Assembly (NCBI RefSeq): GCF_010731655.1
Contig: NZ_AP022619.1
Span: 5,518,001 to 5,582,000, forward strand
DNA: 64,000 nucleotides
Reading direction: 5' to 3'
Origin: Mycobacterium paraseoulense
GTDB lineage: Bacteria; Actinomycetota; Actinomycetes; Mycobacteriales; Mycobacteriaceae
Made by a program: the position numbers and the translations under genes. Below are positions 22,251-37,690 of the stretch, piece after piece. Each line of letters opens with the position of its first letter. Position 1 is the first letter of the stretch. The notes under the pieces were generated by a model, which was not told the DNA's origin, made no database searches, and saw only the letters and a program-made list of their open reading frames with translations.

Positions 22251-23092
22251 TCGGGGCCGCTTACGCCCAGCTGTCTGCCGTTACCTACGGCGTCAGCGAT
22301 TTCGTGGGCGGTGTAGCCGCTCGACGGGTGGCAGCGCTGCGCGTGATGCTGGTGGTCTACCCGATCGAGACATTCCTGCTGGGCGCGTTGGCCGTGGCCG
22401 TGGGCGGGCCGATTTCGCGCGGTGCCATCTTTTGGGGTTGCCTCTACGGCGTCGGCATGGCGGTCGGCATGTGGGCGTTCTTCGCGGCGCTGGGTGCCGG
22501 GCCGATCTCGGTCGTCTCACCGTTGGCGGCCGTCCTCAACGCCGCTGTGCCGGTGGCGGTCGGTGTGGCGCTGGGGGAGCGGCCGGGGCCAGGGGCCTCG
22601 GCGGGGGTGGTGCTGGCCCTCATCGCGGTCATGCTGGTGAGCCGGGAGGCCACCGCCCAGGGCGTCACGCCGTATCGATTCACCCCGAAGGTGGCGTGGC
22701 TCACGCTCCTGGCCGGCACGGCAATGGGCCTGAACCTGGTGTTTCTGCACCAGGCGCCGTACGCATGCAAACTGTGGCCGCTGGTGTTCGCCCGGCTCTC
22801 GGCGACCGTGGTGATCTTCGTGATGGCGGCGGCCAGCAACAACCTGCGCGCGCCGCGCGGGCAGCCCATGAAGCTGGCCTGGGCCGTGGCCCTTTTGGAC
22901 ATCTGTGCCAACGTGACCATGCTGCTGGCGCTGCACACCTGGTTGCTTTCGCTGGCCAGCATCCTGATCTCGCTCTACCCGGCGGCAACCGTGATCCTGG
23001 CGATGCTCGTCTTGCGCGAGCGACTGACCCGCTGGCAGGGGTTCGGCATGGTGATGGCCATGGGATCCGTGGCCATGATCGCCGCAAGCTGA
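22247..23092 (+). CDS. EamA/DMT-family transporter
   Basis: About 281 residues and ten hydrophobic helices with the two-repeat EamA layout. Family homology begins with IGAAYAQLSAVTYGVSDFVGG, which lies upstream of the first ordinary start codon (GTG 22304). The only start-like codon between the preceding in-frame stop and this segment is CTG 22247, overlapping the smpB stop (CTGA). Starting at GTG 22304 would remove the first helix. Substrate unknown; probably a metabolite or drug exporter. Confidence 0.8.
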   Translation: MIGAAYAQLSAVTYGVSDFVGGVAARRVAALRVMLVVYPIETFLLGALAVAVGGPISRGAIFWGCLYGVGMAVGMWAFFAALGAGPISVVSPLAAVLNAAVPVAVGVALGERPGPGASAGVVLALIAVMLVSREATAQGVTPYRFTPKVAWLTLLAGTAMGLNLVFLHQAPYACKLWPLVFARLSATVVIFVMAAASNNLRAPRGQPMKLAWAVALLDICANVTMLLALHTWLLSLASILISLYPAATVILAMLVLRERLTRWQGFGMVMAMGSVAMIAAS

Positions 23093-23134
23093 CGCCTGCG
23101 CCCGCCCGGTAGCCGACCGGCCTACTATCCGAGA

Positions 23135-23980
23135 ATGGCCGATCGCCCCGTCACCAAGCTCGACAAGTCCGATGTGCTCGCCGGTCTCTTCGCGGTGTGG
23201 GACGACATCACCGCGCTGCTGGACGGGTTGCCGGAAGCGGAGTGGGAGGCGGCCAGCCCGCTGCCCGGTTGGGACGTCAAGGCGTTGGTGGCGCACATAA
23301 TCGGTACCGAGTCGTTCCTCGCCGGCGTCCACGCGCCCCAACCCGACATCGACGTCTCGACGCTCGAGCACGTCCGCAACGACATCGGTGCGATGAACGA
23401 GTGCTGGGTCCGTCACCTCAGCGGGGAACCCGGTGCCGAGGTGCTCAACCGGTTCAGGGACATCACCGACCAGCGGCGCAAAGCGCTGACGGGCATGCCC
23501 GACGGAGAGTGGGACGCGGTGACTCTGACGCCGGTCGGTCCGGAGAGCTACGGGCGGTTCATGCGGGTCCGGGTGTTCGACTGTTGGATGCACGAGCAGG
23601 ACATTCGCGACGCGCTAGGGCGGCCCGCTTCCGATGACCAGCTTGTCGGGCCCGCGTCGGAACTATCCCTCGACGAGATCGCCGCCACGATGGGCTACGT
23701 GGTGGGCAAGCGGGCCAAGGCACCGGAGGGCTCGCGGGTCCTGTTTGAATTGACCGGCCCGCTCACCCGGGACATCCGCGTCAGCGTCGACGGCAGGGCC
23801 CAATTGGTCGACGACTTCGGCGGCCGGGAGCCGACCGTGACGATTCGGGTGGACGGGCTGCAGTTCACCAGGCTCGCCGGCGGGCGGCGCATGTGCACCG
23901 CTCGGTCGCAAAGCATCGACCTTGGCGGCGACGAAGGCGTGGCCGCCCGGATCGTCGATCATCTGAATTTCGTGATCTGA
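23135..23980 (+). CDS. Mycothiol-dependent maleylpyruvate-isomerase-family protein
   Basis: 281 residues with a DinB/MDMPI N-terminal four-helix domain (LPGWDVKALVAHIIGTESFLAG, about 47-68, with a metal-binding His; later MHEQDIRDALGRP near 155) and a C-terminal SCP-2-like beta domain (VDGLQFTRLAGGRR). Family members are metal-dependent and use mycothiol, the actinobacterial thiol. The specific reaction is unknown, because most mycobacterial paralogues are uncharacterised. Confidence 0.82.
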   Translation: MADRPVTKLDKSDVLAGLFAVWDDITALLDGLPEAEWEAASPLPGWDVKALVAHIIGTESFLAGVHAPQPDIDVSTLEHVRNDIGAMNECWVRHLSGEPGAEVLNRFRDITDQRRKALTGMPDGEWDAVTLTPVGPESYGRFMRVRVFDCWMHEQDIRDALGRPASDDQLVGPASELSLDEIAATMGYVVGKRAKAPEGSRVLFELTGPLTRDIRVSVDGRAQLVDDFGGREPTVTIRVDGLQFTRLAGGRRMCTARSQSIDLGGDEGVAARIVDHLNFVI

Positions 23981-24009
23981 TCGCAGCGGGCACCGGGAAG
24001 ATAAGTCCG

Positions 24010-24037
24010 TTGCCGCACGTTGATAGCAGCGTATTAT
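24010..24037 (+). promoter_or_regulatory. Candidate ssrA promoter
   Basis: TTGCCG and TATTAT hexamers are separated by 16 bp, ending 33 bp before the tmRNA 5' end. This is close to the SigA pattern expected for a highly transcribed stable RNA. Confidence 0.5.
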
Positions 24038-24070
24038 GGATTGTCCTGCCGAAAATCGGCGGGGATGCGA

Positions 24071-24435
24071 GGGGCTGAACGGTTTCGACTTCGCGCATCG
24101 AATCAAGGGAAGCGTGCCGGTGCAGGCAAGAGACCACCGTAAGCGTCGTTGCAAACAGATAAGCGCCGATTCACATCAGCGCGACTACGCTCTCGCTGCC
24201 TAAGCGACAGCTAGTCCGTCAGACCGGGAACTCCCTCGACCCGGAGCCTGGCGTCAGCTAGAGGGATCCACCGATGAGTTCGGTCGCGGGACTCATCGGG
24301 ACACCAACAGCGACTGGGATCGTCATCCTGGCTAGTTCGCGTGACCAGGAGATCCGAGCAGAGGCATAGCGAACTGCGCACGGAGAAGCCTTGAGGGAAT
24401 GCCGTAGGACCCGGGTTCGATTCCCGGCAGCTCCA
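24071..24435 (+). ncRNA. ssrA: tmRNA
   Basis: The 5' GGGGCTG pairs with CAGCTCC at 24428-24434 to form the acceptor stem, and the T-arm CCGGG-TTCGATT-CCCGG is intact. The resume codon GCC at 24165 opens the tag reading frame ADSHQRDYALAA, ending TAA at 24201-24203, the mycobacterial degradation tag. Length is 365 nt plus a CCA that is not fully encoded (the genome reads ACTTT). It rescues stalled ribosomes together with SmpB. The 3' end is the left attachment repeat of the adjacent island, and no terminator follows it directly. Confidence 0.97.
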
Positions 24436-24436
24436 C
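24412..24436 (+). repeat. Left attachment repeat (attL-like) in ssrA 3' end
   Basis: 25 bp covering the tmRNA T-loop through the discriminator, with core GGTTCGATT and CGGCAGCTCCAC. It recurs at 36470-36494 with one mismatch (C to T in the T-stem). The tmRNA 3' end is a standard integrase target. Confidence 0.85.
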
Positions 24437-24458
24437 TTTGGAGGTTCAGCGCCGCGAC

Positions 24459-25100
24459 TCAATCGGTGGTCCGACGCGCGACGTCAGCGAGCAGGGACGT
24501 CAAGAGGAGCTCGAATGCTCGATCGTCTCGTCTCAGCGCGGCGTCGGTGAACCCGACGTCATCGGCGAATTCGATCTCGAGTGCTGCGCGGTGCTTGTGC
24601 GCCAACCGTTCGAGAAGTACCGAACCCCGGACGAGCTCCGAGACCGCCGCATACGTTTCCTGAGCCGTCTGCTCATCGAGTCCACCTTCGATCATGCAGG
24701 CGATCGCCTTCGCGGTCTCCCGTGCACCGAGACGTCGCGCCAAGGGGCTCAGAGCACCTCGAATGAGTATCAGGTCCGTCAACACCGGATCACCGACGAA
24801 CGTCTGTCGCACTCCGCGGGCGTGCGCCAGCAACGACTCGCGCCAATCGTCCGACTCCACGAAGGCCGGCAACCCGCTGCGACGCAACGCGCGATCGGTC
24901 ATGGCGTCGAGAAGCTCTGACTTGTTGCGCACGTGCCAATAGACGCTGGTTACGCCCACTCCCAGCGATTTGGCGACCAGTGGAATGCTGAGCTCATCGA
25001 TCGATGAGTCCGCTGCTACCGCGAAGGCGGCTTCCACGATCGCGTCCGCGGTCAGCGAGCCTCGCGCTCGTCGCTGTGGCGGTGAACTTTGCACCATCAC
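24459..25100 (-). CDS. TetR-family regulator 1 of the island
   Basis: 213 residues (GTG 25100 or ATG 25097). The N-terminal DNA-binding domain LTADAIVEAAFAVAADSSIDELSIPLVAKSLGVGVTSVYWHVRNKSELLDAM is canonical but must be read as two parts around helix 2; the C-terminal ligand domain is of the TetR/AcrR type. It follows the DapB-like gene by 42 bp and is probably co-transcribed with it. It converges on tmRNA. Confidence 0.88.
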   Translation of the reverse strand: MMVQSSPPQRRARGSLTADAIVEAAFAVAADSSIDELSIPLVAKSLGVGVTSVYWHVRNKSELLDAMTDRALRRSGLPAFVESDDWRESLLAHARGVRQTFVGDPVLTDLILIRGALSPLARRLGARETAKAIACMIEGGLDEQTAQETYAAVSELVRGSVLLERLAHKHRAALEIEFADDVGFTDAALRRDDRAFELLLTSLLADVARRTTD

Positions 25101-25142
25101 CTTCTTACGCCCGCCGAGAAGCGCGAAGCCCGCGGAACCGTC

Positions 25143-26243
25143 TCAGCGACGGGTTTGACGGGTCACGATCGAGGAACCGGCCAGTGGCCCGGGCAGGAGT
25201 CCGGGTGCGGCGTCGATGACGGCCGGTATCGCGTTGATCGCCGCCATCGCTGTTGCGGCGACGCCGGGGTTGGTGGCGTCGTCTCGCGCGGGGTCGAGGC
25301 GAAGGTCGAGGGTCATGTTGGGGAACCCCTCGATGCGGAACACCATTCCGCCCTTGCCGGGTTGCGCTGGGCGCGGCCAGGTGTCGGGCCAGGGTGTGGA
25401 GGTCACGGTCGCGAAGTATTGAACCGACACGACAGGCCGCTCGTCGTGGATCGCAGCCAGCCGCCAGCGGTGGGCGCAGATCGTGTTCTGCGGGATCACG
25501 CCGAGTGCGGTGTCGAGGTCGTGCGGGGCGAGGATCGTCTCCCAGTCCAACGCCACTCTGTCGACCTCCACGGACAACGTGTCGGCGATGTAGCGCACGA
25601 CGGGTTCCCAGTCGTTGTTCACCTTGCCCACCGCAATGCGAATGGGAACGTGACCGTCGGGCTTTCCGAAACCCATCGACTCGTGGAGGACCTCCCAGAT
25701 CGGGTAGGCCAAGTCGAGGTCGAGGGCGTACTCGTCCATTCGATACGAGTCGATCACACCGGCACCGGCCAGCAGCGCGGTCGGCAGGTTCAGGCTCACG
25801 AAACCGGGTTCGCACCCCGTCGCGTAGAAGGTTGCGTTGCCTTTTCGAGCGGCCCGCTCGATCGGGTCACGCCAATTCGCCGGGGCGGCTTTCGGATAGA
25901 CCATCGGGATCGCTGAGATGGTGACGACGTTGATGCCGGCTTCCAGGTAGCCGGCGATGTCGGCGATCACCTCGTCTTCACGCCGGACGGCGGTCGCGCA
26001 GTAGGCGATGCAATCCGGCTTGGCATCCAGAACTGCCGCCAGGTCATCCGTCGCTGCGATGCCCACATCGGGGCGTCCACACAATCGACCTGCATCCGTG
26101 CCGATCTTCGTCGGCGACGACACTTTGACCCCGATCAGGTCCAGTGCGGGGTCGTCGATGATCGCGCGGAGGGCCACGCTTCCCGTCATGCCGGTGCCGA
26201 CGTGAACAACACGACGCTTCGCGGTGGCAGGAGATGAAGTCAC
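25143..26243 (-). CDS. DapB-like NAD(P)-dependent dehydrogenase
   Basis: 366 residues from GTG 26243. A Rossmann start RRVVHVGTGMTGSVALRAII (about 10-29) and a dihydrodipicolinate-reductase-like N-domain with YCATAVRREDEV near 80 place it with the amine or diaminopentanoate-dehydrogenase-like group, none of which act in lysine synthesis here. Mycobacteria carry many such paralogues in lipid or steroid catabolic loci. Substrate unknown. Transcribed away from the SDR remnant, under a possible operator at 26339-26354. Confidence 0.78.
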   Translation of the reverse strand: MTSSPATAKRRVVHVGTGMTGSVALRAIIDDPALDLIGVKVSSPTKIGTDAGRLCGRPDVGIAATDDLAAVLDAKPDCIAYCATAVRREDEVIADIAGYLEAGINVVTISAIPMVYPKAAPANWRDPIERAARKGNATFYATGCEPGFVSLNLPTALLAGAGVIDSYRMDEYALDLDLAYPIWEVLHESMGFGKPDGHVPIRIAVGKVNNDWEPVVRYIADTLSVEVDRVALDWETILAPHDLDTALGVIPQNTICAHRWRLAAIHDERPVVSVQYFATVTSTPWPDTWPRPAQPGKGGMVFRIEGFPNMTLDLRLDPARDDATNPGVAATAMAAINAIPAVIDAAPGLLPGPLAGSSIVTRQTRR

Positions 26244-26338
26244 AGGCGTTGCCTCTCAGCCGATAGCGGGTGTCGGGCGGGCTCGTCGCGAGCCGACGGC
26301 GCGATTGCCAACTCATTGGATCCCAACTTACTGTAGGC

Positions 26339-26354
26339 AATCCTAGTAAGGATT
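26339..26354. promoter_or_regulatory. Inverted repeat AATCCT-AGTA-AGGATT
   Basis: A perfect 6-bp inverted repeat with a 4-base centre in an AT-rich stretch about 96 bp upstream of the DapB-like gene, surrounded by further CTTACT / AGTAAG symmetry. It differs from the TCAAGTG palindromes elsewhere in the island, so it may be the target of TetR regulator 1. Confidence 0.45.
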
Positions 26355-26404
26355 ACCAGAAGCCGGTTCAGTTCAGCGGGCCGCGATCGAGGGAGGCGAC
26401 GCAG

Positions 26405-26509
26405 GTGCCGAAGCGGACCATCATCATCACTGGGTCGAGCGACGGCTTCGGAGCCGCAGCTAAGCGCCCGATCGTGATCGTGACCGATGCGGCCCAGGGC
26501 GTTTGGTGA
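26405..26509 (+). pseudogene. Short-chain dehydrogenase N-terminal remnant
   Basis: GTG 26405 begins PKRTIIITGSSDGFGAAA, the first strand and TGxxxGxG cofactor motif of an SDR, then turns into unrelated residues and stops at 26509. The remaining 200 or more residues are missing, and the reading frame runs into the 3' end of the opposite-strand TetR gene. This records a deletion inside the island. Confidence 0.65.
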
Positions 26510-27134
26510 CCTTGCGGGGAGTGGACGGCCGGACGCCTTCGGCGAAAATCCGCGCCCCAAGTGCTATCTGGGCGCGAATGTCGGCCTCGGCGGTACCGAA
26601 CCAGCGCGGACCGACGGTCGTGGTGAAGATCGTGAAATTGGCGAGCAACTCCGCCAGAGTGACGGGGTCAACGTCAGGAGTGATTTGGCCGAGACCTTGA
26701 TAATGGGCGACGCCCTTGGCGATCACCGACACACGGTGCTCGTGATTGGGACGCACGACTCGCATGGAGAACGAGGGGTCGGATAACGCGCGTCCCGCTA
26801 TGTCCCAGCCCGGCACCGTGCCCTGGCCATGATGAAGTCGCGTGTCGAAGAGCTGCTCAACAAACTCGACGAATTGGTTAGGCAAAGCCTCCATCACTTT
26901 GTCTTCTGCTTCGGTAACTCCCTCAGCGATCTGACGTGATACCACTTGTTCGAAGATGCCCTGCTTGTCACCGAAATAGTGAAAAAGCATGGATTCTGAA
27001 CAGCCGGCACGGCGAGCTATCTCTTTCGTCACCGCCGCATCAAACCCCTGTTCGGCGAAGACTTCAGTGGCCGCCTCTAGTAGCGCGCGCTGCTTCCCGT
27101 CCTTATCGCGGACTCGCTTCGCGCTACTGGTCAT
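26460..27134 (-). CDS. TetR-family regulator 2 of the island
   Basis: 224 residues from MTSSAKRVRDKDGKQR at ATG 27134 (a GTG 24 bases upstream is possible). The helix-turn-helix EIARRAGCSESMLFHYFGDKQG is clear; the C-terminal tail is basic (PHRSRSRSGA). It diverges from the alcohol dehydrogenase across a 111-bp gap whose centre is the palindrome TCAAGTGGCACTTGA, so it is the best candidate for the protein that binds all three such palindromes. Confidence 0.88.
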   Translation of the reverse strand: MTSSAKRVRDKDGKQRALLEAATEVFAEQGFDAAVTKEIARRAGCSESMLFHYFGDKQGIFEQVVSRQIAEGVTEAEDKVMEALPNQFVEFVEQLFDTRLHHGQGTVPGWDIAGRALSDPSFSMRVVRPNHEHRVSVIAKGVAHYQGLGQITPDVDPVTLAELLANFTIFTTTVGPRWFGTAEADIRAQIALGARIFAEGVRPSTPRKVTKRPGPHRSRSRSGA

Positions 27135-27196
27135 AGGAACACCGTAACGCGACGACACGCTTCATCATTGACATTGGGCTCCGCAGGTGGTCATTA

Positions 27197-27211
27197 TCAA
27201 GTGGCACTTGA
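27197..27211. promoter_or_regulatory. Island operator copy 1: TCAAGTG-G-CACTTGA
   Basis: Perfect 7+1+7 palindrome between divergent TetR 2 and the alcohol dehydrogenase. Near-identical copies occur at 29752-29766 and 29785-29799. Confidence 0.7.
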
Positions 27212-27245
27212 CAATAGCCTCGCGACGTCGTTAAATGCGTCGACA

Positions 27246-28367
27246 ATGAAGATGAACGCAGCGGTCTTGTGGGATGTGCACCAGGAGTGGAGCGTCGAGG
27301 AGATCGAGCTCGATGGCCCCAAAGAAGGCGAGGTGCTCGTCTCCTTTGAGGCGACGGGGCTATGTCACTCCGATCACCACGTTCGCGAGGGTGATCTTCC
27401 CCTCGCGCTACCTCTCGTCGGGGGCCACGAAGGCGCGGGCATCGTCCAAGAGGTCGGGCCGGGCGTCCGGAACCTGAACGTCGGCGATCATGTGGTGGGC
27501 TTGTTCCTGCCGGCGTGCGGGCGATGCCGTTGGTGCTCGAGCGGCCACCAGAACTTGTGTGACCTCGGTGCCCAGATGGCGACCGGCGAGCAACTTGACG
27601 GCGGCTTTCGCCGTCACGCCAAGGGCCGCGACATCGGCGCGCTGGCCTGGCTCGGCGCATTTGCGCAATACGGCACCGTGCCGGAGGCATCGGTGGTCAA
27701 GATCGACGACGACCTCCCGCTGAGCCGCGCCTGTCTCGTGGGCTGCGGCGTGACCACCGGTTGGGGCTCGGCGGTCAACACGGCCGAAGTCAAACCTGGC
27801 GACACCGTCGTCGTGATCGGGTGCGGCGGAATCGGCAGTGGGGCGATCCAGGGGGCGCGGCTGGCCGGGGCCGAGAAGATCATCGCCGTCGACATCGTAG
27901 AAGGCAAGCGGGACATGGTGTCTCAGTTCGGAGCCACCCACTTCGCGAGGTCGATGGAGGAGGCGACGGCCTTGGTGGCGGATCTGACCCGCGGCGTGAT
28001 GGCCGACTCCGCCATCGTGACGGTCGGCCTGGTGGAAGCCCCGATGATCGTCGACGCACTCAACATCGTCAGCAAGAACGGCGCCGTCGTCATCACCGCG
28101 CTGGGGTCGATGCTCGACATGACGGCGAGCCTGCCGATGTCGATGGTCGCGCTGGTCACGCTGTATCAGAAGCGCGTGCTGGGAAGCCTTTACGGCCAAG
28201 CCAACCCGCGTGCCGACATTCCGCGACTGCTCAGCCTCTATCGCGAGGGCAAGCTTCTACTCGATGAAACAGTCACCACCGAATACAAGCTGGCCGACAT
28301 CAACGACGCATACGACGACATGCTCGCCGGCCGAAACATTCGCGGCGTGATCATTCACGAACACTGA
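27246..28367 (+). CDS. Zinc-dependent alcohol dehydrogenase (MDR, NDMA-type)
   Basis: 373 residues from ATG 27246 (MKMNAAVLWD). The catalytic zinc site GLCHSDHH (about 40) and GGHEGAG (about 65), a structural zinc loop CGRCRWCSSGHQNLC (about 94-108) and the NAD site GCGGIGSGAIQGARLAGA (about 195) are all intact. It fits the actinobacterial NDMA-dependent or AdhD-like alcohol dehydrogenases. In the island it would oxidise a hydroxyl produced by the P450 or carried by the substrate. Confidence 0.9.
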   Translation: MKMNAAVLWDVHQEWSVEEIELDGPKEGEVLVSFEATGLCHSDHHVREGDLPLALPLVGGHEGAGIVQEVGPGVRNLNVGDHVVGLFLPACGRCRWCSSGHQNLCDLGAQMATGEQLDGGFRRHAKGRDIGALAWLGAFAQYGTVPEASVVKIDDDLPLSRACLVGCGVTTGWGSAVNTAEVKPGDTVVVIGCGGIGSGAIQGARLAGAEKIIAVDIVEGKRDMVSQFGATHFARSMEEATALVADLTRGVMADSAIVTVGLVEAPMIVDALNIVSKNGAVVITALGSMLDMTASLPMSMVALVTLYQKRVLGSLYGQANPRADIPRLLSLYREGKLLLDETVTTEYKLADINDAYDDMLAGRNIRGVIIHEH

Positions 28368-28385
28368 CTCCTCGAGCTGAACGCG

Positions 28386-29609
28386 TCAGTCCAGCCTCAC
28401 TCGCGGCCCGGGTGTGAACACCACAGGAATCTTGCGGAACCCTCGGGTCACGGAGTTACCGTGAAAGACCGACTCGGCATCGGTCGCTACGGTGTAGTCG
28501 GGCATCCGGGCCAGCACCTGCTCGACGCCGATGCGAAACTCCAGCCGCGCGAGGTTCGAGCCCAGGCAACGGTGAACGCCGGCGCCAAACCCGAGATGGC
28601 GGTTGGTTTCTCGGTCGAGGAGGCATCGGTGCGCATCGGGAAACTCGCGGTCGTCGCGATTGGCGGATGCGTAGTTGACGATGACCTGTTGTCCCGGGCA
28701 CAGGCTCTGCCCACCGATCTCGACCTCCTTGGTAACCGTGCGCGGAATGCCGTGAATCGAGCCGGCGAAGCGGATCAGTTCCTCGACCGCAGTCGGCATG
28801 AGCTCGGGTTCGTGGATCAGCCGATCCCGTTCGTCGGGACGGGTGCCCAGGTAGTGGAAAGCGCACGACATCGCGCTGGCCGTCGTCTCCAAGCCCGCTT
28901 GCACCAAGAGCATCGCGTTCGACACGACGTCATCGAATTTCAGTCTGACACCGTCGATCTCCGCTGATAGCAGGACGTCAATCATGTCGTCTTGAGGTTC
29001 ACCTTGCATCCGTGTTGTGACGGCATGGGTGATGTGCTGGTAGAGGCCGCCCCAAGCCGTTAGGCGGATCTCTTCGGTTTCCCCGTTCAGCGCTGTATCG
29101 GTGAGCTCGATGCACAGCGGAACGTCGCCGACCGGCATGCCGAGCAGATACTTGAAGAACACGATCCCAGGTTGCTGCCAGGCGACCACCGCCAAATCGC
29201 CGCGGCCGTCTTCGATGAACCCATCGATCAATGCATCGGTTTCGGCGCGGATCTGCGGTTGCAGCTGCTTCATGCGGCCTGGGGAGAAGTACGGGTTGAG
29301 CACTTTACGGAGCGCCTGCTGGCGCGGTGGGTCCAAGAGGATGACGACGTCACCCGATAGCTGCATAGCGTCGCCGGGCGGCGGCGTGCTCGAAAAAGTG
29401 TCCCAGTCCCTGAGGATTTCGTAGCACTCGTCGTAAGTCATCGCCAACCAGGCACCGTCTTCCCGCGTGCTCAGAAACGGGAAGTCGGTATGCGCGATTG
29501 CCGCCTTGTCGCGCATGTGCGAATACAGCTCGTACAAGAAGTCCGGATCCTTGAAATCCTCGTGGCGAAGATCGAAGTTCTCGGCATGGTCCTCGAGCGA
29601 CTTGGGCAC
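28386..29609 (-). CDS. Cytochrome P450
   Basis: About 407 residues from GTG 29609, the normal bacterial P450 length. The I-helix oxygen-binding motif AGLETTAS (about 235), the K-helix ExxR in EELIRF, and the heme ligand motif FGAGVHRCLG with Cys near 348 are all present. The frame is open up to about 29815 and beyond, but that part crosses two operators and is probably not translated. A ferredoxin at the island's right end is the likely redox partner, with FprA as possible reductase. Substrate unknown. Confidence 0.9.
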   Translation of the reverse strand: MPKSLEDHAENFDLRHEDFKDPDFLYELYSHMRDKAAIAHTDFPFLSTREDGAWLAMTYDECYEILRDWDTFSSTPPPGDAMQLSGDVVILLDPPRQQALRKVLNPYFSPGRMKQLQPQIRAETDALIDGFIEDGRGDLAVVAWQQPGIVFFKYLLGMPVGDVPLCIELTDTALNGETEEIRLTAWGGLYQHITHAVTTRMQGEPQDDMIDVLLSAEIDGVRLKFDDVVSNAMLLVQAGLETTASAMSCAFHYLGTRPDERDRLIHEPELMPTAVEELIRFAGSIHGIPRTVTKEVEIGGQSLCPGQQVIVNYASANRDDREFPDAHRCLLDRETNRHLGFGAGVHRCLGSNLARLEFRIGVEQVLARMPDYTVATDAESVFHGNSVTRGFRKIPVVFTPGPRVRLD

Positions 29610-29751
29610 TGGGGCGTAATCCTTCTCTTCGTGCGACCACGACGTCGGTGTCGCGGCTTCGCTACGCGGTCCTCCTGCAGCGGTCGGCCTCGGGCCGACT
29701 CGTACGTCCGAAAGCCGTGTTTTCGCACGATAGATGCCCAAAAACCGGTCG

Positions 29752-29766
29752 TCAAGTGTCACTCGA
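29752..29766. promoter_or_regulatory. Island operator copy 2: TCAAGTG-T-CACTCGA
   Basis: Same 7+1+7 palindrome as at 27197 with one asymmetric base (C for T in the right arm). Its centre is 33 bp, about three helical turns, from copy 3. Confidence 0.65.
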
Positions 29767-29784
29767 TAATCGCGCGCAGCACTA

Positions 29785-29799
29785 TCGAGTGTTACTTGA
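29785..29799. promoter_or_regulatory. Island operator copy 3: TCGAGTG-T-TACTTGA
   Basis: Third copy of the palindrome, with two asymmetric substitutions. Together with copy 2 it would let one regulator control both the P450 and the amidohydrolase-to-ferredoxin transcripts. Confidence 0.65.
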
Positions 29800-29921
29800 C
29801 AAGTTCGATTCACACTCATAGTGTCCGAAGAGGTTGGGAGTCGTCGGCGATCAAGCGCGCTCCGCCCGACGAACCGACGCGCAGCCGCCGGACGATCACA
29901 CAACGGCCCCAGGGAGTATCC

Positions 29922-31124
29922 GTGGAACAAGATCTGCAGTGGCTCATCTCCGTCGATGACCACATCATCGAGCCGCCGAACGTCTGGGTCGATCGCGCAT
30001 CCGCCGCTGACCGCGATCGCGTGCCGCACGTCGAACGCATCAACGGTGTCGACACATGGGTCTACGAGAGGCATCGCGCCACAGTCATGGGCATCTTGGT
30101 GGCCGCCCATCAGCAGCCCGACGATTACTCCCCGCTGTCGGTCAACTACGACGATCTGCCGAAGGTCTACTTCGACCCGAAGGCCCGAATCCCAGACATG
30201 GACGAGGATCACGTCATCGCCGGATTGAACTTCCCGTTCTTTCCGCGCTTCTGCGGACAGGTATTTTCGCAAGTTCAGGACAGGGAACTCGGGTTGAAAT
30301 GCCTCAAGGCATACAACGACTACATCATCGACGAGTGGTGTGGGGCGGCGCCGGGCCGCTACATTCCGATGATCATCGTTCCGCTGTGGGACACCGCACT
30401 CGCGGTCGCCGAAGTGCACCGGTGCGCAGACAAGGGTGCGAAGGCGATCGCATTTTCCGAGAACGTGCACGCGCTCGGCTTCCCGTCGATCCACTCGGGG
30501 GAGTGGGACGGATTCTTCGCGGCAGCGAACGAAACGAAGATGCCGCTCTGCACGCACATCGGGTCGTCGTCCGTCAGCCCGAACACGTCGCCCGATGCGC
30601 CGTTCGGCGTGCAGTCGGTGAACATCGGTCTCAACCTGGCCCACTCCACAACGGACTGGCTGTTCTCGGGCAAGCTGCAGAAGTTCCCCGACCTCAAGAT
30701 CGTTCTGGCCGAGGGTGGCATCGGGTGGATCCCTTACCTGCTCGAGCGGGCGGAGCACGTCGCCTCCGAATATCGCTACCTACGAGCCAACAACTGGACG
30801 GTCGACCCGGCGACCATGCGGATGAGCGCAATCGCCGCGGACCCGGCCGTCTTCCCGGAGTCGCCTCGACAGTTGTTCCGCGATCACATCTACGGCTGTT
30901 TCATCGAGGACGAATTCGGCGCTGCCAACCTCGATTACATCGGCGTCGAGAACGTGATGATCGAAACCGACTACCCGCACACCGACAGCCTCTGGCCCCG
31001 TTCACTGGAAGCCGCGCTCAAGAGCCTCGAGGGCAGGTCGGACGGGGACAAGTACAAAGTGCTGCAAGGCAATGCCCGGCGCGTCTTCAACTTCGAACCC
31101 GCTCCGTACCCGGTCGCGAAGTAG
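29922..31124 (+). CDS. Amidohydrolase-2 family protein
   Basis: 400 residues from GTG 29922, preceded by AGGGAG with a 5-base spacer. The metal-site start ISVDDHIIEPPNVW (family variant of xHxH), CTHIGSSS near 207, and the final ETDYPHTDSLWP (metal Asp/His) are typical of the ACMS-decarboxylase-like branch that carries out decarboxylation or hydration as well as hydrolysis. It is the first gene of a plus-strand operon with only 4-46 bp gaps. Many mycobacterial catabolic loci hold homologues with unassigned reactions. Confidence 0.88.
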   Translation: MEQDLQWLISVDDHIIEPPNVWVDRASAADRDRVPHVERINGVDTWVYERHRATVMGILVAAHQQPDDYSPLSVNYDDLPKVYFDPKARIPDMDEDHVIAGLNFPFFPRFCGQVFSQVQDRELGLKCLKAYNDYIIDEWCGAAPGRYIPMIIVPLWDTALAVAEVHRCADKGAKAIAFSENVHALGFPSIHSGEWDGFFAAANETKMPLCTHIGSSSVSPNTSPDAPFGVQSVNIGLNLAHSTTDWLFSGKLQKFPDLKIVLAEGGIGWIPYLLERAEHVASEYRYLRANNWTVDPATMRMSAIAADPAVFPESPRQLFRDHIYGCFIEDEFGAANLDYIGVENVMIETDYPHTDSLWPRSLEAALKSLEGRSDGDKYKVLQGNARRVFNFEPAPYPVAK

Positions 31125-31128
31125 CGGC

Positions 31129-32661
31129 GTGGCGATCCGCCAGTACGAGAACTTCATCGACGGTCGATGGACGAGTGACAACGCCGGCGCGCTGATAGAC
31201 GTGGTCGACCCGGCCACCGAAGAACTGGTCGGCCGCGTTCTCGACGGCGGTGCAAAGCAAGCCGTCATGGCCATCGAAGCGGCGCGCCGGGCATTCGACG
31301 AAGGTCCTTGGCCGTGGATGTCGGTGCGCGACCGCGCGAGAATCCTGAAGCGCTTCAGCGAGATCATGGAGTCACGGCACGACGAGCTTCGCGAGCTCAT
31401 CGTTTCCGAGATCGGCTCGGTGGGCTTCCTCACCGACTTTCTGCAGGTGGGCGGGGCGATCGAAGCATCCCACTATTACAGCGATTTCGTCGAGCACGAC
31501 GTCACCTGGGTGGAGACTCCGGGAGGGCCGACGGTGTCACCGACCGGGCTCGGCGGCACCGTCGTCGTTCGGGAGCCCGTCGGGGTGGTCGGCGTGATCA
31601 CACCGTTCAACTTCCCCTTCTCGATCAACCTGCAAAAGTGCCTGCCCGCGCTGGCGGTCGGTTGCACGGTCGTCTTGAAACCACATCCGTGGACGCCGAT
31701 GAATGCGCTGGAACTGGCCAGGATCGGCGAGGAGGCCGGCATACCGGCGGGTGTCTTCAACGTCGTGGTTGGCGGCGGCGATGTGGGGGAGGAGCTGTCA
31801 ACGAATCCCCTGGTGGACATGATCGCTTTCACCGGGTCGACGGAGACCGGAAAGCGCATCCGGGAGGTTTCGGCGCGCACGATGAAGCGGGCTCAGCTGG
31901 AACTGGGCGGGAAGAGTGCTCACATCGTTCTCGACGACGTGACCGAATCCGACGTCGCCGGTATCGGTTTCGGTCAAGTGCTGATGCATTCGGGACAGGC
32001 ATGCGTCGCCGCGTCGCGCCTGTTGCTGCCTGAGCACTTGCTCGATTCCTACATCGACGGCGTGAAGGCCATGGCGCCGAACCTCACCATCGGTGACCCC
32101 CGCGACCCGGCCACGGTGGTTGGTCCGCTGATCCGTGAACAGCAGCGGCGGCGGGTCGAGGGCTACGTGCAATCGGCGCTCGACGAGGGAGCCACGCTGG
32201 TGGTCGGAGGCAAACGGCCCGAACATCTGAGCAGAGGCTTCTTCTACGAGCCGACGGCGTTCGTTAACTGTCACAACAAAATGCGGATCTGCCGGGAAGA
32301 AGTGTTCGGCCCAGTTCTGACAGTGCAGACTTACCAGAGTCAAGACGAGGCGATCCGGATCGCCAACGACTCCGACTACGGACTCGCAGGGCTCGTCATG
32401 ACACACAACGCCGCACGCGGGTTCAACGTGGCGCGCCAAATCCGCACCGGCACGATCATCGTCCAGTGCTGCGGCGGTGGCCCGGCAGATCCCGGTCTTA
32501 ATCCGGGCAACGGCGAGGGCCCGGGCTGGTCGGTGCCCGCGCGTGGAATGTTCAACGGCGGAGGCCCTTTCGGTGGTTTCAAGCACAGCGGTCTGGGGCG
32601 CGAGCAGGGCCGCTGGGGCTTCGAGGAGTTCACCGAGATCAAGTCGATCTCGTGGATGTGA
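31129..32661 (+). CDS. Aldehyde dehydrogenase (NAD(P)+)
   Basis: 510 residues from GTG 31129, four bases after the previous stop. It has the catalytic Glu motif ELGGKSA (about 260), catalytic Cys in HSGQACVAASR (about 294), cofactor segment FTGSTETGKRI (about 237) and PFNFPFSINLQKCLPAL near 160. The C-terminal part has a glycine-rich insertion (CCGGGPADPGLNPGNGEG) before the usual PFGGFKHSGLGRE. It probably oxidises the aldehyde made by the island alcohol dehydrogenase to an acid for CoA transfer. Confidence 0.93.
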   Translation: MAIRQYENFIDGRWTSDNAGALIDVVDPATEELVGRVLDGGAKQAVMAIEAARRAFDEGPWPWMSVRDRARILKRFSEIMESRHDELRELIVSEIGSVGFLTDFLQVGGAIEASHYYSDFVEHDVTWVETPGGPTVSPTGLGGTVVVREPVGVVGVITPFNFPFSINLQKCLPALAVGCTVVLKPHPWTPMNALELARIGEEAGIPAGVFNVVVGGGDVGEELSTNPLVDMIAFTGSTETGKRIREVSARTMKRAQLELGGKSAHIVLDDVTESDVAGIGFGQVLMHSGQACVAASRLLLPEHLLDSYIDGVKAMAPNLTIGDPRDPATVVGPLIREQQRRRVEGYVQSALDEGATLVVGGKRPEHLSRGFFYEPTAFVNCHNKMRICREEVFGPVLTVQTYQSQDEAIRIANDSDYGLAGLVMTHNAARGFNVARQIRTGTIIVQCCGGGPADPGLNPGNGEGPGWSVPARGMFNGGGPFGGFKHSGLGREQGRWGFEEFTEIKSISWM

Positions 32662-32707
32662 GGCTCCAGTGCACGCGGGCATCGGAATTCTGAAAGGTTG
32701 ATTGCCG

Positions 32708-33874
32708 ATGCTTCACGATGTTCGCGTGCTCGAGCTGTCCCTCTTCTCCCCCGACGCCCTCGGCGGACACCTCGCCGACCTGGGCGCCGAGGTGATCAAG
32801 ATCGAACAACCCGGGGGCGGCGGGTTCCGCGGCGGACTCTTTCCGCCCGACAACGTGCAAAACCTCCAATGGAATCGCGGAAAGAAAAGCGTCACGCTCG
32901 ATTTGAAATCGGAGAAGGGGGTCGCGATCTTCCGGCGCCTCGCCGCCGACGCCACGGTGGTGATCGACGGCTTGCGGGCGGGCGCCGCCGAGCGACTCGG
33001 CCTCGGCTATGACGACGTCGTCGAACTCAACCCGACCGTCGTCTACTGCAGCCTCAACGGGATGGGTAGCTACGGCCCGTACGCGAAGCTTCCGACACAT
33101 GGGTTGTCGTTCGACTGCTTCGCCGGACTGAACCCGCCGCTGATCGAGGCCGACGGCACACCGCGCCTGTCGGCCGGTGCCACGGGCACGACGGGTGTGT
33201 TGGCCGGTCCGCTCTACGCCGCGATGGCGGTTCTCGCTGCACTGCACAGCGCGCGCCGTGACGGGCGAGCGCAATACGTCGAAGTCTCCCAAGTCGACGC
33301 CGCGATCGCGTGGAACTTTCAGAAGCTGACTGCCCACGCGAACGGCCTGTTCGGCTACTCAGACGGTGTGCACGCGTCGCTGCGGTACCAGTACTACGAA
33401 ACCGGCGACGGGAACTACGTGGTGTTCAACGCGTTGGAAGACAAGTTCTGGCGCAGATTCTGCGAAGCCGTGGACCGAATCGATCTCTACGAGCGTGGCC
33501 GCGCGCGTCTGGGTGACGATCCGCACGCCGACGAACACCTGCGCAGTGAGCTCACCGCGATCTTCAAGAGCCGCAGTCGTCGTGAGTGGACTGAGTTCTT
33601 CATAGCGACCGATATCGCCGGTGCTCCGGCCTTCGAAAGCAGCGACCTGCTTGACGACGAACACGTCAAAGCACGTGGCATGGCCTACGAGCCGTCCGCC
33701 GCGAACCGGCCGCGTTTGCGGCTGATCGCAACGCCGATCAAGACCAAGCCCGACCGTCCGTTCGCCGCGGAGCTTCCGCCGGCCGTCGGGGCGCACACCG
33801 ACGAGGTGCTCACGACGCTGGCCGGCTGCGACGAGACGGAACTCGCTGCGCTGCACCGCGACGGAGTGATCTGA
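32708..33874 (+). CDS. Class III CoA-transferase (single domain)
   Basis: 388 residues from ATG 32708, 46 bp after the aldehyde dehydrogenase. The family start VRVLELSLFSPDALGGHLADLGAEVIKIEQPGG is clear. At the catalytic position it reads VEVSQVDAA, giving the Asp used by formyl-CoA transferase, whereas both domains of the next protein have Glu there. It may therefore be the active transferase of the set. Adjacent start of the double transferase follows its stop with no gap. Confidence 0.9.
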   Translation: MLHDVRVLELSLFSPDALGGHLADLGAEVIKIEQPGGGGFRGGLFPPDNVQNLQWNRGKKSVTLDLKSEKGVAIFRRLAADATVVIDGLRAGAAERLGLGYDDVVELNPTVVYCSLNGMGSYGPYAKLPTHGLSFDCFAGLNPPLIEADGTPRLSAGATGTTGVLAGPLYAAMAVLAALHSARRDGRAQYVEVSQVDAAIAWNFQKLTAHANGLFGYSDGVHASLRYQYYETGDGNYVVFNALEDKFWRRFCEAVDRIDLYERGRARLGDDPHADEHLRSELTAIFKSRSRREWTEFFIATDIAGAPAFESSDLLDDEHVKARGMAYEPSAANRPRLRLIATPIKTKPDRPFAAELPPAVGAHTDEVLTTLAGCDETELAALHRDGVI

Positions 33875-36238
33875 ATGAACATTCTCCAAGGGGCGCGGAT
33901 CGTCGAGATCGCCGACGAGATTGCCGGACCGTACTGCGGCAAGCTGTTCGCAGACGCTGGCGCCGAAGTGATCAAGGTCGAGTCGCCACGCGGCGATCGG
34001 CTTCGTCGCAGGGGGACGGGGCGGCGCGCGGACGACGATGGGGCTCTGTTCACATTTCTGAACGCCGGAAAGCGCTCGGCCGTGGGGGTTTACGGCGAAC
34101 CGCACGTCGATGGCTTGATCGCCGGAGCCGACATCGTGATCGATGCGGGAGCCTGCGGCCGAATCGACCACGACGAATTACTGCGTCGATTGCCACATCT
34201 GGTGATCGCTGTGATGTCACCGTTCGGCCTGACCGGCCCGTCTCGCGACAAGCCGGCAACAGAGTTCACCCTGCAGGCCGAAAGCGGAACAATGGGTCTG
34301 CGGGCCCGGCCGGACCAACCACCCCTGCAAGCCGGTGGCCGCGTCTTCGAATGGGTCCTCGGAAGCTATGCGGCGGTCGGTGCGCTGGCTGCATACCTTA
34401 GTGCCCGTGCCGGAGGCGGTGGCGAGATCATCGATTGTTCGCTGATGGAAGCATGCCACCTCAGCGCCAGCGGCTTCATCGACTTGTACTACGCGCTCGC
34501 CGGCAGTCCACCGATTTCGGCTCCACCGCGAATGACTGAACTGCCCTCGATCGAGCCGACCGCCGACGGCTGGGTTGGGTTCAATACCAACACCCGTCAG
34601 CAATTCGAGTCCTTCCTGCTCATGATCGAGCGCGACGATCTGCTTGAGCAGGATGCGGCCTGGGCCTTGGCTCCGACTCGATTCGAGCGAATGGAGGAAT
34701 GGAACAAGATCGTGCGTGACTGGACCACCCGGCACACCACGGAAGAGGTCGTCGAACTCGCCTCGGCACTTCGGATTCCGGTCGCGCAGGTCAACAACGG
34801 CCGGACCGTCCTGCAGCACCCACACTTCAAGGCGCGCGGCGCCTGGCGCGTCAGCGCTGACGGCTCATTCACCCATCCGCTACCGCCCTACCGAATAAAC
34901 GGGACGAGGCCCGGCAGCAGCCCCAAGCCGGGACCGCGACTCGGCGAGCTCGGCGCTTCTGAATGTCCCTGGAGTTCAAGGAAATCGGAGGTTACCCAGT
35001 CGCCTGTGAACCTCCCCTTGGCGGGCATCCGCATCATCGATGCGACCGCTTGGTGGGCTGGGCCCTCGTCCACCCACATCCTCGCCGCATTGGGCGCCGA
35101 CGTGATTCACCTCGAGTCGATTCAGCATCCGGACGGCGCGAGGATGACGGCCGCAGCATTCATCGACCGGCCCGACTGGTGGGAGCGCTCGGCCATGTTC
35201 TTGGCCACCAACACCAACAAGAAGGGTTTGACGCTCGACCTTTCATCTGCAAAAGGCCGAGAGCTGTTCTTCCGGCTTGTCGAGCAAGTCGATCTGGTGG
35301 TGGAGAATTTCTCACCGCGCGTCTTCGAGAATTTCGGTATCACCTGGGAAGCACTGAGCGCTGTCAACCCGCGGCTGATCATGACCCGGATGCCCGCCTT
35401 CGGTCTGGACGGACCGTGGCGGAACAACGTCGGTTTCGCGCAGACCATGGAACAAATGACCGGCATGGCCTGGGTGACCGGCCACGAATACGACCAACCC
35501 CGGATCCCGCGTGGCCCTTGTGACCCGTTGGCGGGTATGCATTCCGCTTTTGCGATGCTGGTCGGCCTGCGCCGGCGCGAGCAGACCGGACGCGGCTCAC
35601 TCGTCGAAGTCTCCATGGTGGAGGCGGCACTGAATGCTGCCGCTGAGCAAGCGATTGAGTACACCGCTTACGGCACCATACTGTCGCGGTTGGGCAACCG
35701 GAGTAGGGACGCGGCGCCGCAGGGGCTGTACCCGTGCCGCGGCGACGAACAGTGGTTGGCTGTTTCCGTCGCATCCGACGCGCAATGGGCGGCGTTGAAA
35801 ACCGTGCTCGGTCGGCCAGGCTGGTCGGATGATCCCGCGCTCGATACACACGAAGGGCGTTGGCGTGCACATGATCTGATCGATAAGCAGCTGGAGCAGT
35901 GGGCAGCCGGCCAAGACTGCACCGAGGTGGCGGCGACGCTGTCGGCTTCCGGAGTTCCCGCCTCACCGCTTTACGACGCGCGGCTCAGCCCTCAACACCC
36001 GCAGATGATCGCGCGTGGCTACTTCGAACACGTGGATCACTCGATCGTCGGTCAGCACCAGGTGCCGACCATTCCATTCCGGTTCCGAAGCGTCGATCGG
36101 TGGTGTCGGACGCCAGCGCCCACCGTCGGAGAGCACAACGAGAGCATCTTGAAGGAACTGCTCGGGTTGGACGAAACCGCGATCGAGGAGCTTACCGCTG
36201 AATCTGTGATCGGCACCCGACTCCGGGGCATCGGTTAG
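33875..36238 (+). CDS. Fused double-domain class III CoA-transferase
   Basis: 787 residues made of two CaiB/BaiF domains. Domain 1 (about 1-370) starts GARIVEIADEIAGPYCGKLFADAGAEVIKVE but is compact; domain 2 (about 385-787) starts LAGIRIIDATAWWAGPSSTHILAALGADVIHLE. The catalytic-position motifs read CSLMEACHLS and VSMVEAALN, both with Glu. Such tandem fusions occur in actinobacterial lipid and steroid gene clusters and may act as an internal heterodimer. Together with the upstream gene the island encodes three transferase domains in series. Confidence 0.9.
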   Translation: MNILQGARIVEIADEIAGPYCGKLFADAGAEVIKVESPRGDRLRRRGTGRRADDDGALFTFLNAGKRSAVGVYGEPHVDGLIAGADIVIDAGACGRIDHDELLRRLPHLVIAVMSPFGLTGPSRDKPATEFTLQAESGTMGLRARPDQPPLQAGGRVFEWVLGSYAAVGALAAYLSARAGGGGEIIDCSLMEACHLSASGFIDLYYALAGSPPISAPPRMTELPSIEPTADGWVGFNTNTRQQFESFLLMIERDDLLEQDAAWALAPTRFERMEEWNKIVRDWTTRHTTEEVVELASALRIPVAQVNNGRTVLQHPHFKARGAWRVSADGSFTHPLPPYRINGTRPGSSPKPGPRLGELGASECPWSSRKSEVTQSPVNLPLAGIRIIDATAWWAGPSSTHILAALGADVIHLESIQHPDGARMTAAAFIDRPDWWERSAMFLATNTNKKGLTLDLSSAKGRELFFRLVEQVDLVVENFSPRVFENFGITWEALSAVNPRLIMTRMPAFGLDGPWRNNVGFAQTMEQMTGMAWVTGHEYDQPRIPRGPCDPLAGMHSAFAMLVGLRRREQTGRGSLVEVSMVEAALNAAAEQAIEYTAYGTILSRLGNRSRDAAPQGLYPCRGDEQWLAVSVASDAQWAALKTVLGRPGWSDDPALDTHEGRWRAHDLIDKQLEQWAAGQDCTEVAATLSASGVPASPLYDARLSPQHPQMIARGYFEHVDHSIVGQHQVPTIPFRFRSVDRWCRTPAPTVGEHNESILKELLGLDETAIEELTAESVIGTRLRGIG

Positions 36239-36254
36239 CAGGGGAGAGAAAACG

Positions 36255-36446
36255 ATGCGCGTACGGATAGACCTCGATGCCTGCCAGGGTCACAGTCGCT
36301 GTGCCTTGACGTACCCGGAGATTTTCGACGTCGACGACGACGCCAAGGCATTCGTCCATGTCGAGAACATCCCGCCGGAATGGGAAGACAAAGCGCTGAT
36401 GGCGATCGCGAACTGCCCCGAGCGCGCCATCAGCATGGACGAATGA
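36255..36446 (+). CDS. [3Fe-4S]-type ferredoxin with His in the cluster motif
   Basis: 63 residues, preceded by AGGGGAGAG with a short spacer. The first cluster segment is CQGHSRC, in which the usual central Cys is His, and the second is NCPERAIS, so a three- rather than four-iron cluster is likely. This pattern is known for ferredoxins paired with mycobacterial P450s. It is the last gene of the island operon and would pass electrons to the island P450. Confidence 0.9.
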   Translation: MRVRIDLDACQGHSRCALTYPEIFDVDDDAKAFVHVENIPPEWEDKALMAIANCPERAISMDE

Positions 36447-36469
36447 CGACGCCCACCAGCACCCCGAAA

Positions 36470-36494
36470 CGGGTTCGATTTCCGGCAGCTCCAC
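36470..36494 (+). repeat. Right attachment repeat (attR-like)
   Basis: 25 bp matching the tmRNA 3' end at 24412-24436 except one C-to-T change, which breaks the T-stem, so it cannot serve the tmRNA. It is followed by CG rather than TT, and lies 23 bp past the ferredoxin stop. There is no tRNA or tmRNA body upstream. Confidence 0.85.
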
Positions 36495-36504
36495 CGAGAA
36501 ATTG

Positions 36505-36540
36505 CTGGTCAGGGCCACAGGCTCTGGCCAGTTTTCTTGT
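36505..36540 (+). terminator. Intrinsic terminator, probably the original ssrA terminator
   Basis: A 12-bp stem (CTGGTCAGGGCC / GGCTCTGGCCAG, two G-U pairs in RNA) with a 3-base loop ACA, followed by TTTTCTTGT. It lies 10 bp past the right repeat, exactly where an ssrA terminator would sit before island insertion. It now would stop the island's plus-strand operon. Confidence 0.8.
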
Positions 36541-36676
36541 CGCCGGGATGTGCTGGCTATCTTCGTGCTGAGGCCGACGGCCGTTCCGCTACTGAAAGTG
36601 GAGCGACGGCCGTGCAGCTAACGTCATCTAGGGTCTCTGTCATTGCGACGCAGGGGCTCGGCACCAAGGAGTGCTC

Positions 36677-37156
36677 ATGATCTATCGCCTTGCCATCGGG
36701 GTGCTGGCCGCTTTGGCGGTGGCGATCATCGTCCCTGCCGAGGGCCATCCCGATCCGCCGACCAAGTGTTTGACCAACACCCCCAAAGGCAAGCAGGTCT
36801 ATGTGCCCTGCGATCTGCTCAACGCCGGCGCCAATTTCCCGCCGGGGCAGCGTTGTCCTCCACCGCTCGAGCAGTACCCGAAAGACGTGGCGGACTGGTG
36901 TGGCGAAGGCCCAGGCCTTGCGACTCCCACGCCGGCGAGTCCGACGACCCCGACGAGTCCTACGACCCCGACGAGTCCGACGACCCCGACAAGTCCCGCG
37001 AGCCCGACGAGTCCTGTGAAGACGACGACTCCCACGACTCCCGCGAGCCCGACGACTCCCACGAGCCCGACGACTCCCACGAGCCCGACGACTCCGACGA
37101 GTCCTGCGAACCCGACGAGTCCGACGAGTCCGACGAGCCCGGACAGCGGATCGTGA
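36677..37156 (+). CDS. Secreted protein with C-terminal Pro-Thr-Ser repeats
   Basis: 159 residues from ATG 36677, with AAGGAG 5 bases upstream. A signal peptide (MIYRLAIGVLAALAVAIIVPAEG) is followed by a small Cys-bearing domain (PTKCLTNTPKGKQVYVPCDLL, a second pair near RCPPPLEQ and DWC), then about 75 residues of near-perfect SPTTPT repeats. The repeat DNA has a 15-bp-like period and could vary by slippage. Likely extracellular or wall-attached; function unknown. First conserved-side gene after the island. Confidence 0.75.
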   Translation: MIYRLAIGVLAALAVAIIVPAEGHPDPPTKCLTNTPKGKQVYVPCDLLNAGANFPPGQRCPPPLEQYPKDVADWCGEGPGLATPTPASPTTPTSPTTPTSPTTPTSPASPTSPVKTTTPTTPASPTTPTSPTTPTSPTTPTSPANPTSPTSPTSPDSGS

Positions 37157-37258
37157 GCATTGACGCGGTCAAGACCGGAAGGCGACAGGCTTCGGGGCTG
37201 CTAGTCCCGGCCGGCTTGTCGCATCGGCCCAGACCATTTGTCGACGATTGCGAAGTCT

Positions 37259-37690
37259 TCAGAACGGGATCGGTTGGTTGTAGATAGTCCCGGTCTGGTT
37301 CTGGACGGGGTCGGTGCAGGTGATGGTGACGTTCCAGAGCGTGCCCGTCGGGAGCTCGGGCGCGAAGTTCAACTGTTGCTGGCCGCCTTGGTTCAGCTGA
37401 AATGTCTGGTTGAGCGGGGCCATCGGCGTGCCGACGCCCTGGAGGACGTCCATGGTCCCAAAGGTCGGGGTGGCGTTGAAAACGCAGGAGCCGTACGTGC
37501 CAGGGCTCCCGTTGCCGCTGGTGTCTGTGACAGTGACCTGCAGACTCGGAAGGTTGTTCAGCGTTGCCGGTTGGAAGTGGACACCGGCGGTGTCGGCCCG
37601 GGCAGTTCCCGCACCGAAGCACAAGACGGCGGACACGGCCACGCTCAACGCCGAGAGGACCTGGTTTTTCGTCGGGCTGCAGGGGTTCAC
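37259..37690 (-). CDS. Small secreted protein of unknown function
   Basis: 143 residues from GTG 37690, preceded by AAAGGA. A signal peptide ends ALCFGAGTARA-like (VLSALSVAVSAVLCFGAGTARA) before DTAGVHFQPATL. The mature part is beta-rich with two Cys (SCVFNA and ITCTDP) that could form a disulphide, resembling an immunoglobulin-like fold. I do not recognise a family. Confidence 0.65.
   Translation of the reverse strand: MNPCSPTKNQVLSALSVAVSAVLCFGAGTARADTAGVHFQPATLNNLPSLQVTVTDTSGNGSPGTYGSCVFNATPTFGTMDVLQGVGTPMAPLNQTFQLNQGGQQQLNFAPELPTGTLWNVTITCTDPVQNQTGTIYNQPIPF

What the first reader, a model, noticed from the sequence alone, without database searches (positions are those of the whole stretch)
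24412..36494. A 12-kb catabolic island integrated at the 3' end of ssrA
A 25-bp copy of the tmRNA 3' end (24412-24436) recurs at 36470-36494 with one mismatch. The genes between, all catabolic or regulatory, end within 22-23 bp of each repeat. The tmRNA gene is a known integrase target, so the repeats look like attL and attR. No integrase is inside, so the element is either decayed or moved in trans. It seems not to be part of the core mycobacterial order.
Basis: partly seen in the sequence, partly recalled or inferred. Interest (0 to 1): 0.85.

Follow-up and report, generated by a model that had tools for sequence, protein, structure and literature searches.

The report
Catabolic island inserted at tmRNA gene
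A 12-kb block of breakdown-pathway genes has been inserted between a mycobacterium's tmRNA gene and that gene's own terminator; a sister species has the empty site and carries related genes beside a copy of a different tRNA gene's end, so this is a real, fairly ordinary mobile island without an integrase of its own.

Summary
The last 25 bp of ssrA (24412-24436) recur at 36470-36494 with one mismatch and nowhere else in the 6.09-Mb chromosome. Eight more of the genomes examined, M. nebraskense and M. europaeum among them, have the downstream gene directly after ssrA.
The cargo is foreign: 86.4% identical to G357's copy against 96.8% for the core, and 86.6% to G419's against 74.4%. In G357 it lies beside a 45-bp copy of the tRNA-Pro 3' end. 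The ssrA end is a genus hotspot: 33 of 148 genomes hold more than one copy, and some have a tyrosine integrase right after ssrA. None was found in this island.
Most likely it is an ssrA-targeted integrative element that lost its integrase end. Movement in trans is not excluded.

The parts
24071..24436 (+). ssrA (tmRNA), the target gene, kept whole
   Evidence: ARAGORN; Rfam RF00023 141.5 bits
24412..24436 (+). left direct repeat (3' end of ssrA; attL core)
24459..25100 (-). TetR-family regulator, ends 22 bp from the left repeat, convergent with ssrA
   Evidence: PF00440
25143..26243 (-). DapB-like / 2,4-diaminopentanoate-dehydrogenase-like NAD(P) oxidoreductase
   Evidence: PF19328; ornith_Ord below cut-off; PDB 6g1h 1.3e-12
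26460..27158 (-). second TetR-family regulator
   Evidence: PF00440
27168..28367 (+). NDMA-dependent alcohol dehydrogenase (start uncertain)
   Evidence: TIGR03989 541.5 bits, cut-off 440
28386..29651 (-). cytochrome P450 (start uncertain; the open frame runs to 30758)
   Evidence: PF00067; best PDB relatives CYP125/CYP142
29922..31124 (+). amidohydrolase-fold protein of the DitZ/PtmU3 group
   Evidence: PF04909; PDB DitZ 1.8e-53, PtmU3 2.1e-27; start set by the 400-aa homologue in L056
31072..32661 (+). aldehyde dehydrogenase (start uncertain, overlaps the previous frame)
   Evidence: PF00171
32702..33874 (+). CoA-transferase family III
   Evidence: PF02515
33875..36238 (+). tandem (double-domain) CoA-transferase family III
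   Evidence: PF02515, 2 stretches
36255..36446 (+). small single-cluster ferredoxin, probable P450 partner (inferred)
   Evidence: PF13370/PF13459
36470..36494 (+). right direct repeat (attR core, 1 mismatch)
36504..36532 (+). hairpin terminator that directly follows ssrA in G357 and M. nebraskense; displaced 12 kb here
   Evidence: 13-pair stem, (5 terminator-like sites in the region against 7.6 in shuffles, so the scan alone proves nothing); junctions
36677..37156 (+). Pro/Thr-rich gene that is first after ssrA in 9 of the 15 genomes (own included) where it was found; marks the ancestral right flank
   Evidence: no Pfam match

Best explanation
Window 24437-36494 is a 12,058-bp genomic island inserted by site-specific recombination at the 3' end of ssrA. 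It regenerates ssrA and pushes the original 3' flank (hairpin, Pro/Thr-rich gene, then the syntenic chromosome) 12 kb away. The recombinase was most likely a tyrosine integrase of the family found directly after ssrA in other mycobacteria. This copy has since lost that integrase end and is now fixed cargo: a P450/ferredoxin, alcohol and aldehyde dehydrogenase, CoA-transferase and DitZ/PtmU3-like oxidation cluster with two TetR regulators. Shown: the repeats, the empty site, the discordant ancestry of the cargo, the hotspot, and that no integrase was detected. Inferred: the integrase family, the deletion, and the pathway (stepwise oxidation and CoA activation of a terpenoid- or steroid-like compound).
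For: Repeats are unique in the genome. Empty site in G357, same order on both sides; also M. nebraskense and, with the same gene next to ssrA, M. europaeum, M. scrofulaceum and M. parascrofulaceum. Cargo and core identities conflict: window-G357 core 96.8%, cargo 86.4%; window-G419 core 74.4% (78.4% in the blastn piece), cargo 86.6% (identities only, no tree built). Cargo lies elsewhere in G357 and G419, 1.07 and 1.42 Mb from ssrA. Hotspot: 33 of 148 genus genomes, own included, have more than one copy of the 25-mer (some copies far off or on the other strand); reversed control 0 of 148. A different 3.1-kb segment with exact repeats occupies the same site in M. terramassiliense. Of 17 repeat-bounded segments at ssrA, 4 have a full-length integrase starting at the ssrA end, 1 a truncated one, 12 none by HMM. 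K1 mycobacteriophages use a 24-bp core at the tmRNA 3' end (PMC3203893, passages).
Against: No integrase remnant was found in the island, so loss of an integrase is inferred from its absence. M. nebraskense holds the same 12-kb unit, with edges at window 24441 and 36457, in a context with no copy of the repeat within 7 mismatches at either edge (only 360 bp are visible on the left, where the contig ends). A random deletion in the window lineage would not predict that shared left edge. In G419 the cargo has no tRNA or tmRNA gene in the more than 20 kb scanned on either side, so it does not always sit at such sites. In G357 and G419 only window 26460-36453 and 26530-36447 are shared, not the island's left 2 kb.
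Confidence: 0.82

Rival explanations
1. The island never carried an integrase: it is a cargo-only element with attachment sites, moved in trans by the integrase of a co-resident phage or element that uses ssrA.
For: 12 of 17 ssrA repeat-bounded segments examined have no integrase by HMM (one of the 12, L155, has a 51-aa fragment by tblastn). The unit has nearly the same edges in M. nebraskense and in the window. K1 phages integrate at tmRNA. A 31-nt ssrA-end query matched 1095 of 50,697 phage records at E up to 10, 228 of them named Mycobacterium (not checked whether these are attP sites or RNA genes).
Against: The own genome holds no close ssrA-type integrase today (best 31% over 249 aa). The M. 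nebraskense copy has no detectable repeat at its edges. Small integrase-less segments are equally explained by decay, and L155, L139 and L156 show integrase fragments.
Confidence: 0.25
2. The genes were ancestral at ssrA and lost precisely in relatives; the repeat is the scar of an old event.
For: M. nebraskense, whose core is 93.6% identical, has the same cargo at 93.5% on a contig that also holds homologues of window 37252-50635, which would fit inheritance in that pair.
Against: G357 is closer in core (96.8%) yet has an empty site and a cargo copy of only 86.4% at another locus. Nine examined genomes have the downstream gene directly after ssrA.
Confidence: 0.08
3. The second copy is a chance or structural similarity and the gene block is normal chromosome.
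For: None found.
Against: No chance matches in shuffles, the genome has only 2 copies, and the empty-site junction falls exactly at the repeat.
Confidence: 0.01

Closest known systems
Cluster K1 mycobacteriophages (CrimD, Adephagia, Angelica, Anaya) integrating at tmRNA
   Same: Same attachment gene and position: a 24-bp common core at the extreme 3' end of tmRNA (PMC3203893, passages; the phage sequences themselves were not aligned here)
   Different: No phage family among the 10 main ORFs and no integrase found; the cargo is catabolic
Genomic islands at tRNA/tmRNA 3' ends (general class, recalled; Williams 2002 seen only as a citation)
   Same: Target gene rebuilt, direct repeats at both ends, empty site in relatives, foreign cargo
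   Different: No integrase found; related cargo lies next to a tRNA-Pro end copy in the sister species
Mycobacterium prophages and phage-inducible islands using tRNA or tmRNA attB sites (PMC10654092, passages)
   Same: Use of tmRNA and tRNA genes as attB
   Different: Those described in the passages carry integrases and phage genes

Membership tests
Genomic island integrated at the ssrA 3' end | Target gene intact, with its 3' end duplicated in direct orientation at the far end | tested here: met
Genomic island integrated at the ssrA 3' end | Empty site in close relatives, junction at the repeat | tested here: met
   G357; M. nebraskense
Genomic island integrated at the ssrA 3' end | Foreign ancestry of the cargo | tested here: met
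   core versus cargo identity matrix; different chromosomal places in relatives
Genomic island integrated at the ssrA 3' end | Own integrase (expected of autonomous members; recalled) | tested here: not met
   so not an autonomous element
Genomic island integrated at the ssrA 3' end | Excision as a circle | not testable with these tools
   needs PCR or reads
Cluster K1-type prophage | Phage structural and lysis genes and integrase next to the core | tested here: not met
   Pfam and NCBIfam of the 10 main ORFs; the PHROGs library was not run
Integrative and conjugative element | Relaxase or conjugation genes | tested here: not met
   none among the Pfam and NCBIfam matches of the 10 main ORFs

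The most novel reading that the evidence does not exclude
One catabolic cluster without a recombinase of its own is passed between different RNA-gene integration hotspots (tmRNA in this species, tRNA-Pro in its sister), riding on whatever integrase is present, so that mycobacterial RNA-gene hotspots trade metabolic modules among themselves.
Probability: 0.2. Interest if true: 0.65.

Novelty: new member of a known kind. Interest (0 to 1): 0.42.

Why it matters
It gives a clean, base-precise case of metabolic genes being added to a mycobacterium at tmRNA, with a sister genome as empty-site control. It also shows that the tmRNA 3' end is a hotspot in the genus, and that 12 of 17 repeat-bounded segments examined there have no integrase detected by the HMM. 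It suggests that catabolic range in these bacteria is partly set by what is parked at a few RNA genes.

Tried and rejected
Decayed repeat at the right edge of the M. nebraskense copy (L056 about 12800): looked suggestive by eye, but 477 of 2000 shuffles reach the score; rejected. Possible relics at L056 about 14280, 20800 and 21900 score 44, 53 and 53. The reversed controls reach 37 (L056) and 41 (window), and an unrelated window place reaches 43, so the first is borderline and the other two probable.

The integrase 2.1 kb past the window end as the mover: it lies about 640 bp from a tRNA-Ala gene and is only 26-31% identical to the ssrA-type integrases; judged a tRNA-Ala element by inference, not the mover.

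A plasmid source: no megablast match in 72,556 plasmid records; the distant search matched 189 records, none covering 80% of the query in one place. A right-hand tRNA-Pro repeat beside the G357 cargo: none above the reversed control at the edge; a score of 35 against 27 lies 9 kb further right and was not followed. Adjacency of the two M. nebraskense contigs: both end in the same 77 bp in opposite orientation, which fits an unresolved repeat and does not prove adjacency. The paper search for DitZ gave nothing relevant in the 6 listed. The search for M. nebraskense with 'genomic island' found 0 papers.

Full report
OBSERVATION. tmRNA is at 24071-24436. Its last 25 bp recur at 36470-36494 with one mismatch; there are no other matches with up to 3 mismatches in the window (0.00 expected) or in the 6.09-Mb genome. 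The outermost genes end 22 and 23 bp from the repeats. In 1-kb windows the G+C of 24000-36999 is 0.605-0.664, against 0.618-0.710 in the flanks shown, a weak difference.

EMPTY SITE. The one-contig genome G357 (unnamed) is 95.1% identical over window 20706-24436. Its ssrA 3' end joins directly the sequence of window 36495 onwards. The order is then kept to window 64000: 92-95% in the main blocks, lower in three (90.8% at 36470-36609, 85.0% at 47317-47798, 79.9% at 49352-49648), with 36610-36644, 47142-47316, 47799-49351 and 49649-49729 unaligned. M. nebraskense DSM 44803 shows the same junction. I looked at 44 genomes besides the own: 40 of the genus (20 of them chosen because they hold a second copy of the repeat, so the sample is biased), M. 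nebraskense, M. terramassiliense, G357 and G419. The Pro/Thr-rich gene of the ancestral right flank was found in 14 of the 44, and in 9 of those 14 it directly follows ssrA. In the other 5, and in the own genome, something lies between. The remaining 30 gave no hit to it in the stretch fetched. M. terramassiliense has a different 3.1-kb segment with exact repeats at this site.

FOREIGN CARGO. Over about 9 kb of cargo the window is 93.5% identical to M. nebraskense, 86.4% to G357 and 86.6% to G419. Over 2.1 kb of core upstream of ssrA the figures are 93.6, 96.8 and 74.4% (a 2954-bp blastn piece gives 78.4% for G419). The cargo therefore did not follow the species; no tree was built. The shared part is window 24441-36457 in M. 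nebraskense, 26460-36453 in G357 and 26530-36447 in G419. Of 396 genus genomes, 39 (own included) have a relative of window 31129-36457 at E <= 1e-100; only G419 (87%) and G357 (86%) are close, the other 36 being 67-76%, and in the four loci checked the order is rearranged. Of the 14 relatives of the tandem CoA-transferase at 67-69% in the 148-genome search, 13 lie on another contig than ssrA and one (G117) 1.4 Mb away on the same contig; in draft genomes a different contig is not proof of distance.

A SECOND HOTSPOT. In G357 the cargo starts about 110 bp after a 45-bp copy of the tRNA-Pro(GGG) 3' end, 16.5 kb from the tRNA gene itself, and synteny with the own genome resumes about 44 bp after the cargo. 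The own genome has that tRNA-Pro gene and a second end copy, but its only match to the cargo query is the one at ssrA. Weak integrase fragments lie just after tRNA-Pro in G357. In G419 no tRNA gene lies in the stretches scanned on either side of the cargo.

THE HOTSPOT IN THE GENUS. The 25-mer with up to 2 mismatches occurs more than once in 33 of 148 genomes, own included; the reversed pattern occurs in none. Some second copies are distant, on other contigs or on the other strand. In 17 of 42 fetched stretches a second same-strand copy (up to 2 mismatches) bounds a segment. A full-length tyrosine integrase starting at the ssrA end is present in 4 of these, a truncated one in 1, and none in 12 by HMM; one of the 12 (L155) has a 51-aa fragment by tblastn. 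The HMM was built from ssrA-adjacent integrases only, so unrelated ones could be missed. The four integrases share 43-94% identity and are PF00589. Published K1 mycobacteriophages use the same site with a 24-bp core (PMC3203893, passages).

MECHANISM. Site-specific insertion at ssrA is shown by the repeats plus the empty site. That the enzyme was a tyrosine integrase of this family is inferred. Loss of the integrase end is inferred: the full-length integrases found start directly at the ssrA end, several other sites show a hairpin there by eye, and this island has neither. Transfer in trans is the main rival. The M. nebraskense copy has edges at window 24441 and 36457, 4 and 12 bp from the repeats, yet no copy of the repeat within 7 mismatches there (360 bp visible on the left). 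This is unexplained and fits neither route simply.

FUNCTION. The genes suggest stepwise oxidation and CoA activation of a hydrophobic acid. The P450's closest solved relatives are CYP125/CYP142. The 'amidohydrolase' is closest to DitZ and PtmU3, and PtmU3 is described as a dinuclear monooxygenase of PF04909 (PMC10811679, passages). The substrate is a guess.

NOVELTY. Islands and phages at tmRNA are a known kind; this is a new member. The searches (listings only) and passages of PMC10654092 and PMC9569102 showed no description of this island. That is not proof that none exists.

Noticed in passing
G357 C1 about 1273965-1285999 (L244:7966-20000): Between tRNA-Pro and its end copy lie four large genes resembling defence components (mad6/mad7/mad8-like, DndH/SspG-like, NERD+UvrD) in PADLOC, next to the cargo.
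   Followed up: partly
window 26380-26460: Short remnant that by eye looks like the start of a short-chain dehydrogenase, longer in M. nebraskense: an internal deletion within the island's left part.
   Followed up: partly
L169:3410-4240 (M. nebraskense), L117:342-1144 (G006): The hairpin plus Pro/Thr-rich gene is itself bounded by two exact copies of the ssrA 3' end, about 0.8 kb apart.
   Followed up: partly
L122 (G080): Four same-strand copies of the ssrA 3' end (0-1 mismatch) within 10.4 kb, apparently several insertions in tandem.
   Followed up: no
L206:1395-3065 (G000 C1 5583395-5585065): tRNA-Ala(GGC) with a tyrosine integrase shortly downstream, just past the window end.
   Followed up: partly
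G087 C1 4131916-4132342: A second tmRNA-like gene over the Rfam cut-off besides the normal one; extra tmRNAs in mycobacteria are described in PMC9569102 (passages).
   Followed up: no
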